This document shows, piece after piece, positions 51,094 to 62,599 of a stretch of 64,000 bases of DNA (the stretch's first letter is position 1; each line of letters starts with the position of its first letter). Source of the DNA: Paludibacteraceae bacterium (lineage in GTDB: Bacteria > Bacteroidota > Bacteroidia > Bacteroidales > Paludibacteraceae); the NCBI GenBank assembly GCA_017962085.1, contig JAGCWA010000014.1, positions 62,001 to 126,000 of the forward strand. Reading direction: 5' to 3'. Position numbers and translations under genes: made by a program. The notes beneath the pieces were generated by a model that was given only the letters and a program-made list of their open reading frames with translations, ran no database searches and was not told the DNA's origin.

Positions 51094-51120
51094 CGGACAG
51101 AATGGCACAAAAGCGGACAG
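51094..51120 (+). promoter_or_regulatory. candidate enhancer (UAS) repeats for a sigma-54 activator
   Basis: CGGACAG occurs at 51094-51100 and again at 51114-51120, 20 bases apart (two helical turns) and on the same face of the DNA, shortly upstream of a -24/-12 promoter. Sigma-54 activators commonly bind such sites, and many NtrC-family sites contain GACA. The activator is not known. Confidence 0.5.
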
Positions 51121-51137
51121 AAAGTTCATTTCAATGT

Positions 51138-51154
51138 TTGGCACGGTTTTTGTA
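51138..51154 (+). promoter_or_regulatory. sigma-54 (-24/-12) promoter
   Basis: TTGGCACGGTTTTTGTA has the -24 GG at 51140-51141 and the -12 region G at 51152 with exactly the required spacing. It matches the consensus TTGGCACG-N4-TTGC except for T in place of the final C. Transcription is predicted to start near 51165 and run rightward into the small ORF at 51287. RpoN-dependent initiation would require an activator ATPase. Confidence 0.72.
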
Positions 51155-51164
51155 TGAATATAGA

Positions 51165-51182
51165 TGACGATAAAGATCGTCA
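51165..51182 (+). promoter_or_regulatory. 5' hairpin at the predicted transcript start
   Basis: TGACGAT and ATCGTCA form a 7-bp stem with a 4-base loop (AAAG), placed exactly at the predicted +1 of the sigma-54 transcript. It could protect the 5' end or regulate translation of the ORF 105 bases further on. Confidence 0.45.
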
Positions 51183-51286
51183 ACTATGATCGAAAATCAT
51201 TTCGAAGAGCTACCCAGCTATGTTTTTCATAACCGAGCAACTCCGTTTAAATAAAACAAATTGTTTAACTTTAAATTGGTAGTATT

Positions 51287-51397
51287 ATGAAAGGTAATGA
51301 GAAAAAGCCTAAAAAGGTTGAGAAAAAAGCAAAACACATTGCTGCTTATTTGGCAGCTGAGGAGTCAGCGTCTCATATAGATGCTAAAAAGAAATGA
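51287..51397 (+). CDS. 36-residue lysine-rich small protein under sigma-54 control
   Basis: An ATG at 51287 opens a 36-codon frame ending in TGA at 51397. Eleven of the 36 residues are Lys, clustered in the first 16 (EKKPKKVEKKAK) and the last three. The middle (about residues 17-31) could form a short amphipathic helix. It lies about 122 bases downstream of the sigma-54 start and 5 bases before a strong terminator, so it fits exactly into a small transcription unit. A basic peptide of this kind might bind nucleic acid, the ribosome or the membrane, but nothing proves this. The transcript could also act as a regulatory RNA. Confidence 0.55.
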   Translation: MKGNEKKPKKVEKKAKHIAAYLAAEESASHIDAKKK

Positions 51398-51401
51398 ATC
51401 G

Positions 51402-51440
51402 AAGGGGGTTGCCAAACAAGGCGATCCCCTTTCCTTTTCT
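51402..51440 (+). terminator. intrinsic terminator of the sigma-54 unit
   Basis: A 12-bp stem (AAGGGGGTTGCC with GGCGATCCCCTT, two G-U pairs) and a 6-base loop, followed by TCCTTTTCT. Confidence 0.82.
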
Positions 51441-51595: not shown

Positions 51596-53458
51596 CTATT
51601 TCGTCACAACGCCCGTCAAATCCTTGGAGAAGTCCACATCGAACTCCACGCCATCCACAACGAGATGGTATGGTTTCGCCTCAAGATTCACCACCTCTGA
51701 TTTGACATCATATATGCACAAGCATCTGCATCTATCTCCGCCCTCCACCGTGCGGATCGTGATGGTATCCCCTTGGGCCACCACCTCAGTACCCTTCGTC
51801 GTGCAACAATTAATCTCGAGGTCGTGAGAAATGACAGTCAACACGCCAGTCTCAGGAGAGAAGACATAAGAGACAAGTGTATCCGCGGATTCAATATGCG
51901 TTAGGACAGGTTCCCTAGAACGAAGGCTATCCATCAGTGAGTCTCCCCTCTCTCTCTTGCAAGGGCTCAAGGAAAGGAGACGACCCCTTATACCCGTAGG
52001 AATAATCCCCGACACGATAGAGTCTTTAGACAAGTCAACATCAAAAGAGATATCACCATACGTCGAGCCCCGCACTGTAATATGATAGACACGAGGCTTC
52101 AGATCCTCCAAGCCAGTGGTAACATCATAAGTACACATGCACTTGCATGGCATACCGACCGGAACAGGGGTAATAACTATATTGTCACCATTTACGTCAG
52201 TCACAGACTGCGCCTCGATGCAACAGCTCAAAGGCACATCATACGCCACAACGACGCCCTCGCCCCGACGGAGGTCGAAACTGTAGGAAACCAACGTGTC
52301 TGTAGTTCTCTCGAGCTCCTCGACCAAACCTTTTTCCGAAGGAGAGCCCTTGCATGAACTACCCTCCAAGAAACGGCCCTTCGGATCTCCATACAGAATC
52401 ACGCCACTAAAGTCTCCTTCGTTTCCGATATGCAAATCGAATGAGCTGCCCTCCACTCGGAAGTGGTATATTTTTTCACTATCCGCAGCACCTTTCCTCA
52501 ATCCATTCACATAAGAAGTGACATCATAATAGCACATGCAATCACAGTCCAGTCCGCCCTTTTCATACACGAACACGACAATCGTATCCTTCATTTGAAT
52601 CACCGGAGAGACGAGATCCGAACAACAGTTCGTATATATGTTATGGGAAGTGATATAAAGTTGGTCGTTTTCGTAATCATAATGATAAGAGATCAAGGTG
52701 TCGCCGTCTTTCCATCTCCATCCGAACGCATCAACATCATCACCATACTCTTCTACCATATAATGGTTCTTACAAGGACTAGTTTTCACATAACCGCCAT
52801 TTGGGAATCTAGAGATAACACCATCTGTACTAGAGTTTAAATCGATATAAAACTCCCCTACGTCTTGCAGGCTGATGAGATAAGGCTCTTGATGAACCCC
52901 CGTTAAGACAACATTCACATTGTAGCCATAACAGAAACAATCACACGCCAACATGACACTCGCCGCAGAATCCTCGAAAATAGGGAATTGAGCAAGTTTC
53001 ATGTCGATTTGGCCATTGGTTCTTGTGACCGAATAATTCAAATCCGCAAACCACTCCGACTCGCAACACATTCCTTCTAAGGAATAGAAGGTTAAGGACA
53101 ACTCTCCTTTCTCAGGGGAATACTGATAGGTGACTAACGTATCGCTCACGTACGAGGAAGCGCTGGAATCAGCCGTACAGTTTCTCACCGCGGAGACCTT
53201 CTTCACGTCCAAATCCTCATGTCCGGAAAAATAGACTTGACTCAAATCATACACGGAAAATTTCTTGGTGAAATTTTGGAACCTACCCTTCGTTTGGATC
53301 TCCACCTGGCGAGTGGAATCGATATGGACAACAGTATCATACACCGATAACTCGTAAATATATGTTTTATTGTCGCTTTTTATATAAATTTTATTGGCTA
53401 CTGAAGCGAAGACGAAAGATGTCAACGCTATCAGACTCATAAGTATATACTTTTTCAT
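51596..53458 (-). CDS. large secreted Cys-rich repeat protein, cassette 2
   Basis: This 620-residue protein has a signal peptide of about 20 residues and an N-terminal segment (KIYIKSDNKTYIYELSVYD) that resembles the N-terminus of the mosaic protein at 9647. The rest is four tandem modules of about 130-150 residues. Each carries a DTLVxYxxx segment, an adjacent CC (CCE, CCS, CCI, CCT), then a CxCxC motif (CDCFC, CDCMC, CKCMC, CRCLC) and a C-terminal YxxxVxG strand. That is five conserved cysteines per repeat, suited to disulfides or metal binding outside the cell. I recognise no named family. The small tailed protein gene lies 3 bases upstream. Confidence 0.62.
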   Translation of the reverse strand: MKKYILMSLIALTSFVFASVANKIYIKSDNKTYIYELSVYDTVVHIDSTRQVEIQTKGRFQNFTKKFSVYDLSQVYFSGHEDLDVKKVSAVRNCTADSSASSYVSDTLVTYQYSPEKGELSLTFYSLEGMCCESEWFADLNYSVTRTNGQIDMKLAQFPIFEDSAASVMLACDCFCYGYNVNVVLTGVHQEPYLISLQDVGEFYIDLNSSTDGVISRFPNGGYVKTSPCKNHYMVEEYGDDVDAFGWRWKDGDTLISYHYDYENDQLYITSHNIYTNCCSDLVSPVIQMKDTIVVFVYEKGGLDCDCMCYYDVTSYVNGLRKGAADSEKIYHFRVEGSSFDLHIGNEGDFSGVILYGDPKGRFLEGSSCKGSPSEKGLVEELERTTDTLVSYSFDLRRGEGVVVAYDVPLSCCIEAQSVTDVNGDNIVITPVPVGMPCKCMCTYDVTTGLEDLKPRVYHITVRGSTYGDISFDVDLSKDSIVSGIIPTGIRGRLLSLSPCKRERGDSLMDSLRSREPVLTHIESADTLVSYVFSPETGVLTVISHDLEINCCTTKGTEVVAQGDTITIRTVEGGDRCRCLCIYDVKSEVVNLEAKPYHLVVDGVEFDVDFSKDLTGVVTK

Positions 53459-53461
53459 ACA

Positions 53462-53950
53462 CTATTTCTTTATAAGTTTGATTGACTGGTCGTTAACTTT
53501 CACAATATAGACACCCTTGATATCAGGTAAGGACAATTGGACTACTCCGTTCTCCGATGAGTTTGTTTGCTTGATCAACTCTCCTAAAACAGTGAACAAT
53601 CCCACTTGCGCCGACTCGGACAAACCCTCGATCAAAACATTTTTGTTGTCCAAATAGGTGACACGCACTTCGTTCGCCTGAACCTCTGGCACACCCTCAT
53701 TACCGCATGGCATAGGAATTCTCGCGAAATAATACTTGCTGACATCCGAGAATGAATAGGATAACGAAACAGATCCCTTCACAAACAGGCTATCATTCCT
53801 ATACTGTAATTCCGGAGAATCCTCCAAAACATAAGAATACGTTGTGTGATTCTTTAATTCAATCATCACAGCATTTGGGTCATCCGCATTAGCGAATGCA
53901 GCCCCATACGCCCCCATTAAGGCCCCAATTAGTAAACATTTCTTTCTCAT
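53462..53950 (-). CDS. small secreted protein with T9SS-like tail, cassette 2
   Basis: This 162-residue protein has a signal peptide ending near AFANAD (about residue 19). It is homologous to the protein at 9156: LEDSPELQY, SLSYSFSDVSKYYF and the tail GVYIVKVNDQSIKLIKK match in order. The frame extends upstream to 54043, but the ATG at 53950 gives the signal peptide and agrees with the promoter at 54122-54152. Only 3 bases separate it from the Cys-rich repeat gene. Function unknown; pairing with a giant repeat protein is shared with the first cassette. Confidence 0.6.
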   Translation of the reverse strand: MRKKCLLIGALMGAYGAAFANADDPNAVMIELKNHTTYSYVLEDSPELQYRNDSLFVKGSVSLSYSFSDVSKYYFARIPMPCGNEGVPEVQANEVRVTYLDNKNVLIEGLSESAQVGLFTVLGELIKQTNSSENGVVQLSLPDIKGVYIVKVNDQSIKLIKK

Positions 53951-54322
53951 TGCTAAAAAAATTACGTTAATAAATACACTATATATATAAATAATCAGAA
54001 ATTCACGGCAATAATCGTCAGCTTCTCCACACAAACACAACACTTAAAAATTGCTGATATTAACCCCCATCTTGAAAGAGGATATTGTACCCTATTATTG
54101 TTTTAAACTTCTTTTGATGTTCAAATATACATAAAATTTTATACTTTCCAAAAATTATCCACATATATTACGATTATATATGGAATATTTAGTATAAATC
54201 AACATCACAAAGAGGATGACGGCAACAATATACGCTGCAAGAATCAACCCACCAATCGGAAAATTAATCAAATCCACGCCACTACCTTCCCTATCGAAAC
54301 AGATTCACGGCCAGACAGAGGA
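53951..54322. other. intergenic region with the cassette-2 promoter
   Basis: These 372 bases, between the start of the small tailed protein gene and the stop of barrel paralogue C, are A/T-rich. Apart from the promoter at 54122-54152 I see no gene, RNA or strong hairpin. Confidence 0.45.
54122..54152 (-). promoter_or_regulatory. consensus promoter of the second secreted cassette
   Basis: On the minus strand TTTG (54149-54152) is followed after 19 bases by TATATTTG (54122-54129), matching TTTG-N19-TAnnTTTG. The predicted leader to the ATG at 53950 is about 165 bases. Confidence 0.7.
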
Positions 54323-62525: not shown

Positions 62526-62599
62526 TGACCCCGGCGGGATTCTAACCCACGATCTTCAGAACCGGAATCTGACGTTCTATACAGCTGAACTACGGGGCC
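62526..62599 (-). tRNA. tRNA-Arg (anticodon CCG)
   Basis: The 74-base cloverleaf on the minus strand folds as 7-bp acceptor (GGCCCCG/CGGGGTC), D arm GTTC/GAAC, anticodon stem TCAGA/TCTGA around the loop TTCCGGT (anticodon CCG) and T stem GTGGG/CCCGC. The discriminator base is A. CCA is not encoded, so it must be added after transcription. The T loop is TTAGAAT with A in place of C56, and the D loop has G18-T19 in place of G18-G19. Confidence 0.92.

What the first reader, a model, noticed from the sequence alone, without database searches (positions are those of the whole stretch)
51094..51440. Self-contained sigma-54 transcription unit encoding a 36-residue lysine-rich peptide
Within 350 bases the sequence shows, in order: two CGGACAG boxes 20 bases apart, a near-perfect -24/-12 promoter (TTGGCACGGTTTTTGTA with exact GG-to-G spacing), a 7-bp hairpin at the predicted +1, a 122-base leader, a 36-codon ORF with 11 Lys and a strong intrinsic terminator 5 bases after its stop. 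Every part sits where a functional unit would need it, between unrelated genes. Sigma-54 promoters with upstream activator sites usually drive conditional stress or envelope responses. Here the only product is a tiny basic peptide or a regulatory RNA. It is too small for most gene callers and could be undescribed.
Basis: partly seen in the sequence, partly recalled or inferred. Interest (0 to 1): 0.85.

Follow-up and report, generated by a model that had tools for sequence, protein, structure and literature searches.

The report
Stress-linked small protein with RNA leader
This is a real gene for a tiny lysine-rich protein in Bacteroidales bacteria, several of them from ruminant stomachs; it appears to be switched on the way these bacteria switch on heat-shock genes, its messenger RNA carries a conserved folded element, and neither the protein nor the RNA matched the family libraries searched.

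Summary
A Lys-rich protein of 36-43 residues was found in 14 of 16 genomes held of the window's genus and in five Bacteroidales families (tool labels). Of 19 CDS pairs compared, 17 have synonymous changes, all with pN/pS at or below 0.37. Most lineages keep a sigma-54-like element. In 9 of 11 representative loci it lies 12-13 nt before a conserved hairpin; the window's own clade is an exception (53 nt). A model of leaders alone, blind to the protein, found five new loci in three new families, all five followed by the protein. In this genome dnaK and hsp20 share promoter type and TGTC/GACA boxes; lon shares the promoter but has only two boxes. In a sister genus the gene directly follows hsp20, which has a sigma-54-like promoter. 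Pfam, NCBIfam, PHROGs, Rfam and PDB sequences gave no convincing match. Best reading: a small protein of the sigma-54 heat-shock group with an RNA leader. That the leader gates translation is a hypothesis with mixed support and does not apply in the same form to the window's clade. The protein's activity is unknown.

The parts
51094..51120 (+). Two CGGACAG boxes with GGCAC between them; candidate activator sites
   Evidence: TGTC/GACA boxes over shuffles in 11 upstream regions (29 against 10.7, 0 of 2000) and in 7 of this gene alone (16 against 6.3, 1 of 2000); motif chosen after inspection
51138..51154 (+). Sigma-54-like -24/-12 promoter TTGGCACGGTTTTTGTA
   Evidence: Identical in six clade-A genomes; kept in most other lineages
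51165..51182 (+). 7-bp hairpin at the predicted +1, present only in the window's clade
   Evidence: Compensatory pair change in three of seven relatives
51207..51243 (+). Conserved leader hairpin GAG-CUACC-CAGCUAUG...CAUAACCG-AGCAA-CUC (P1 GAG:CUC, P2 CAGCUAUG:CAUAACCG)
   Evidence: 23 aligned leaders, 13 columns identical in all; covariation score 0.095 against 0.042, 0 of 500 shuffles
51261..51286 (+). TTGTTTAAC...-type stretch before the start codon, resembling many hsp20 5' UTRs; no GGAG Shine-Dalgarno here
51287..51397 (+). ORF of 36 codons, MKGNEKKPKKVEKKAKHIAAYLAAEESASHIDAKKK
51401..51438 (+). Intrinsic terminator

Best explanation
The unit is a single-gene transcript of the sigma-54 heat-shock (proteostasis) group of Bacteroidales. 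RpoN polymerase, with an activator bound at the GGACA/TGTC boxes, makes a short mRNA that carries a conserved hairpin in its leader and encodes a 36-43-residue, highly basic protein, probably disordered at its N-terminal half with a C-terminal helix. Shown here by comparison: the gene family, purifying selection on the protein, the kept promoter and its spacing to the hairpin in most lineages, compensatory changes in the hairpin, and the position directly after hsp20 in one genus. Inferred: RpoN and activator dependence, heat induction, and control of translation by the hairpin, whose 3' strand CUC could pair either with the hairpin's own GAG or with the Shine-Dalgarno GGAG in members that have one. 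Guess with least support: the protein binds RNA or ribosomes during protein-folding stress.
For: Gene family: 14 of 16 genus genomes, genera g20, g4, g2 and families f19, f55, f93, f106. Protein: pN/pS 0-0.37 in the 17 of 19 pairs with synonymous changes. Promoter: 9 of 11 representative loci score 7-10 of 11 at a gap of 12-13 nt, shuffle mean about 3.3. Leader; blind recovery of the ORF by model R1. Heat-shock link: dnaK, hsp20 and lon promoters in the same genome, g20 hsp20 with TTGGCACGCTATTTGA in 5 of 5 loci read, box enrichment. RpoN domain in 37 of 38 genomes. PMC12316311 (passages) reports sigma-54 promoters enriched before chaperone and protease genes in Bacteroidota.
Against: No expression data. 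The promoter pattern alone is not in excess in the genome. Boxes are few in some lineages: g4 one, f93 none. L126 and L127 have no sigma-54-like site (best 6 of 11), f55 has it 17-21 nt away and the window's clade 53 nt away. G018 (g4) carries the gene but no RpoN domain was found. Folding energies do not favour P1: probability 0.00-0.02 in all 23 leaders. One P2 pair is non-standard in 10 of 19 distinct rows, and further pair types are no more than in shuffles, 177 of 500. SD pairing exceeds spacer shuffles in only some lineages, and the window's clade, g20 and f106 have no GGAG.
Confidence: 0.62

Rival explanations
1. The RNA is the main product: a sigma-54-driven small regulatory RNA whose hairpin is the active part, with the ORF as a secondary or dual function.
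For: Hairpin columns are more conserved across families than the protein; few synonymous changes in clade A (pS 0-0.14 in four pairs) against 0.16-0.25 in nadE.
Against: Low pN/pS throughout; every one of the 8 model-R1 hits with E below 0.01 is followed by the ORF at the model's start codon; the hairpin also sits next to the ORF inside the hsp20 transcript of g20.
Confidence: 0.15
2. A sigma-54 small gene of another stress (envelope, nitrogen, metal), not heat shock.
For: No expression data; lon in this genome has only two boxes, one intergenic-unrelated hit (L064) has five; f93 has none.
Against: Position after hsp20 in g20 and shared promoter and box type with dnaK and hsp20.
Confidence: 0.2
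3. The leader is a plain RNA thermometer: the start site is hidden in a helix that melts on heating.
For: GGAG is predicted paired with the leader's CUC in most members that have it; strong against shuffles in g1 clade B, g4 and L061.
Against: Conserved internal-loop bases are not needed for melting; the window's clade, g20 and f106 have no GGAG, and f55 L088, G013 and G008 do not exceed shuffles.
Confidence: 0.12
4. Chance assembly of motifs with no gene.
For: Promoter pattern no commoner than its reversed control.
Against: Conservation against unconserved flanks, protein-like evolution, blind recovery of the ORF.
Confidence: 0.01

Closest known systems
Sigma-54 heat-shock genes of Bacteroidota (groES, grpE, dnaK, hsp20/ibpA, lon; PMC12316311, passages)
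   Same: Promoter type and, for dnaK and hsp20 of this genome, TGTC/GACA boxes
   Different: Encodes a tiny protein with no Pfam or NCBIfam match and has its own conserved leader hairpin
RNA thermometers and riboswitch-type leaders (recalled)
   Same: A leader that can pair with the Shine-Dalgarno of a stress gene in some lineages; conserved internal-loop bases
   Different: No Rfam match at the gathering score; seen with one gene family only; no ligand or melting shown
Small basic stress proteins such as E. coli Sra/RpsV and the KGG-motif proteins (recalled)
   Same: Short, lysine-rich, stress-linked
   Different: No sequence relationship found or tested directly; no match in Pfam, NCBIfam or PDB sequences

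Membership tests
Sigma-54-dependent promoter | GG-N10-GC element at -24/-12 | tested here: met
   GG-N10-GT in the window, 10 of 11 positions; kept in most lineages
Sigma-54-dependent promoter | RpoN present in the genome | tested here: met
   Own genome and 37 of 38 tested in all
Sigma-54-dependent promoter | Transcript lost in an rpoN mutant | not testable with these tools
   Needs RNA-seq
Bacteroidales sigma-54 heat-shock regulon | Shares promoter and activator boxes with chaperone genes | tested here: inconclusive
   Boxes shared with dnaK and hsp20, lon has two; hsp20 neighbour in g20; motif chosen after inspection
Bacteroidales sigma-54 heat-shock regulon | Induced by heat | not testable with these tools
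   No expression data
Translated small protein family | Selection on the amino-acid sequence | tested here: met
   pN/pS 0-0.37 in 17 of 19 pairs; two pairs had no synonymous change
Known protein family (Pfam, NCBIfam, PHROGs, PDB) | Profile match | tested here: not met
   17 members: Pfam none at E 0.1; NCBIfam two members at best E 0.065; PHROGs one at 0.095; PDB sequences none at E 1
Known structured RNA family (Rfam) | Match at gathering score | tested here: not met
   Window: only a tRNA at 62526-62599; 12 member loci: none; sub-threshold hits only
Structured cis-regulatory leader | Covarying helix next to one gene family | tested here: met
   4 pairs changed on both sides (3 of 500 shuffles as many), score 0 of 500; alignment fitted to the structure
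RNA thermometer | Start site held in a helix that melts on heating | tested here: inconclusive
   CUC:GGAG pairing beats spacer shuffles in some lineages; no GGAG in the window's clade; melting not testable

The most novel reading that the evidence does not exclude
The leader hairpin is a new class of regulatory RNA, riboswitch-like or protein-binding (possibly bound by the basic protein itself), which adds translational control to a sigma-54 heat-shock gene for an undescribed small stress protein spread over many Bacteroidales.
Probability: 0.3. Interest if true: 0.8.

Novelty: new variant of a known kind. Interest (0 to 1): 0.62.

Why it matters
Part of the heat-shock response of Bacteroidota appears to run on sigma-54 promoters (PMC12316311, passages), and its small members are hard to see with gene callers. 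This gives a short, concrete and testable gene: a conserved small protein and a conserved RNA leader under one promoter, with relatives that sequence models can find. If the leader is a switch, it would tie protein-folding stress to translation in a phylum where, as far as I recall, few such elements are known.

Tried and rejected
RNAalifold on MAFFT alignments of nine leaders gave no structure. The hairpin was seen by hand, then tested with counts. On those nine sequences support was modest (score 11 of 500 shuffles, pairs changed on both sides 213 of 500); it rose when the five loci found by the model were added.

Peptide searches returned many chance matches. In one search, 145 of 358 family genomes passed E 0.5; the confident ones (E at most 1.1e-15) are 17 genomes, 11 of g1 and 6 of g20 (G356 cut at a contig end), plus two of g4 at about 6e-4 and G013 at 0.004, later confirmed; of the listed rest most lie inside longer frames. 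In one search there were 4 matches in 393 genomes, one of them (G602) inside a 284-codon frame. The class search found only the window's genome in 395, so the profile used there was too narrow: the leader model later found f55, f93 and f106.

Weak leader-model hits: 27 loci were read (6, 21). By eye 14 are hsp20 5' UTRs; 10 of these 14 were scanned with Pfam as pieces of 61-80 residues and 8 matched HSP20. By eye they share the TTGTTTAAC...GGAG part and not the hairpin; they are not counted as members.

A missing RpoN domain in G018 looked like a natural experiment, but G345 and G347, which also carry the gene in g4, have it, so I dropped this.

The AlphaFold model (mean pLDDT 70.7, pTM 0.23, one helix 20-34) was too weak for a fold search, which was not run.

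No copy in G006 and G012, nor in G346 (g4) and G357-G359 (g20) with the leader model.

Papers: searches (86 found 0 papers; 66 failed). Passages only were seen of PMC12316311, PMC12596196 (no RpoN in it) and PMC8040213 (its candidate structured RNAs are in supplements that I could not search and might include this one). Absence from print is not shown.

Full report
WHAT IS THERE. Its named relatives are metagenome assemblies titled Paludibacteraceae (5 of 11 loci) or Bacteroidales (6 of 11), several from rumen or omasum. Taken alone the promoter match proves little: its pattern occurs 22 times in the genome against 24 for the reversed control.

CONSERVATION IN THE GENUS. An identical peptide is found in 7 of the 16 genomes held of the genus, the window's included and one copy cut at a contig end, and a diverged one in 4 more. 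Three more carry a third form, MGAAGNKKPKG(A/S)KTGKHAPAY..., found with the leader model. That makes 14 of 16; G006 and G012 gave none. In six clade-A genomes, compared without gaps, the -24/-12 is identical, the leader 98% and the CDS 99% on average, the 5' flank 33% and the 3' flank 71%. All CDS changes in the four clade-A pairs computed are synonymous and few (pS 0-0.14), against pS 0.16-0.25 in nadE of five genomes; for the three pairs seen in both genes it is 0.05, 0.10 and 0.14 against 0.16, 0.21 and 0.22. The RNA may therefore also be constrained, but 111 bases is a small sample.

BEYOND THE GENUS. The protein occurs in genera g20, g4 and g2 of the same family and in families f19, f55, f93 and f106. 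The last three were found by model R1, built from nine leaders that end at the start codon and so blind to the protein. Of 393 order genomes, 14 matched at E 0.5 and 8 at E below 0.01; all 8 are followed by the ORF, and 5 of the 8 were not in the model. Model R2 on 295 genomes gave 63 with E up to 1, but only five with E at most 1.2e-9, all already known; the rest start at 0.022. On 37 chosen genomes R2 gave five new members at E up to 3e-4 and one weak hit without the ORF. Family and genus numbers are the tool's labels. That G016 is Paludibacter is my inference from its single 3.7-Mb contig.

THE PROTEIN. Length 36-43, Lys 9-12. M1, K7, K9, H17 and Y21 (window numbering) are invariant in 17 rows, one of them clipped by two residues. 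pN/pS is 0-0.37 in the 17 of 19 pairs with synonymous changes. There was no convincing match in Pfam, NCBIfam, PHROGs or PDB sequences (best E 0.065). AlphaFold suggests a helix at 20-34 with modest confidence.

THE PROMOTER. Leaving out the window's clade (site 53 nt before the hairpin) and g20 (gene inside an operon), 11 loci were tested. Nine have a sigma-54-like site 12-13 nt before the hairpin, scoring 7-10 of 11 against a shuffle mean of about 3.3. The exceptions are L126 (best 6 of 11 anywhere, 4 at this gap) and L088 of f55, whose site scores 10 of 11 but lies 18 nt away. With the usual start 12 nt after the -12 base (recalled), transcription in these nine would begin at the foot of the hairpin. 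The RpoN domain was found in 37 of 38 genomes; the one without it, G018, carries the gene.

THE HEAT-SHOCK LINK. Among the 22 pattern hits in the genome, three lie before dnaK, hsp20 and lon. Four of the 22 have at least three TGTC/GACA boxes within 130 nt: dnaK 5, hsp20 4, this unit 3, and L064, not before a heat-shock gene, 5; lon has 2. Over 11 upstream regions there are 29 boxes against 10.7 in shuffles (0 of 2000 as many); over the seven of this gene 16 against 6.3 (1 of 2000), with g4 at one and f93 at none. The motif was picked after seeing these regions, so the numbers overstate it. In sister genus g20 the gene follows hsp20 directly, and 5 of 5 loci have TTGGCACGCTATTTGA before hsp20. 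PMC12316311 (passages) independently reports sigma-54 promoters enriched before chaperone and protease genes in Bacteroidota.

THE LEADER. Across 23 aligned leaders 13 hairpin columns are identical. P1 is GAG:CUC, GAA:UUC in g20. P2 is CAGCUAU:AUAACYG with a constant C.A mismatch; its second pair is A-U, G-C (f55) or the non-standard A.C (10 of 19 distinct rows). In all 92.5% of cells pair; 4 pairs are changed on both sides (3 of 500 shuffles as many); the covariation score is 0.095 against 0.042 (0 of 500); further pair types are not above shuffles (177 of 500). Sliding the partners by 1-3 columns gives 21-40% paired. The alignment was fitted to this structure, which favours it. Energy folding does not support P1 (probability 0.00-0.02 in all 23); in most members with GGAG it pairs CUC with GGAG instead. 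Against spacer shuffles this is strong in g1 clade B, g4 and L061 (0-1 of 200), weaker in L060, L123, L090 and L089 (12-26), weak in L092 (41) and absent in L088, L125 and L126 (121-167); L001 of the window's clade, g20 and f106 have no GGAG. A switch between hairpin and hidden start site is a hypothesis. Because the hairpin lies far from the promoter in g20 and shows pair changes, I read it as an RNA rather than a DNA site.

VERDICT. A real small-protein gene, absent from the libraries searched, with its own conserved RNA leader, most probably in the sigma-54 heat-shock group. My estimates: translated gene 0.95, sigma-54 promoter 0.9, functional RNA leader 0.85, heat-shock regulon 0.7, leader gates translation 0.4 (lowered from 0.45 after rechecking), protein binds RNA or ribosomes 0.3.

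Noticed in passing
L093, L094, L097-L099, L101, L103, L105, L106, L108, L110, L117-L119: Many hsp20 5' UTRs in the order share a TTGTTTAAC...GGAG stretch with this gene's leader: by eye 14 of 27 weak leader-model hits are hsp20, 8 of 10 scanned confirmed by Pfam.
   Followed up: partly
L066, L067, L081, L084 (own genome): Sigma-54-like sites reading TTGGCA...TTTGTACTA with no TGTC/GACA boxes within 130 nt, three of them before large ORFs; perhaps a second promoter group.
   Followed up: no
L022-L025, L124-L127: In g1 clade B the gene lies directly after a DUF6873 gene (Pfam on L022 only); the same gene appears to precede it in L124-L127 by eye.
   Followed up: partly
window 51596-53458 (-): A 620-aa protein with repeated Cys-rich segments and no Pfam match at E 0.01, beside a protein (53462-54043) with a sub-cut-off match to a Por-type C-terminal sorting domain.
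   Followed up: no
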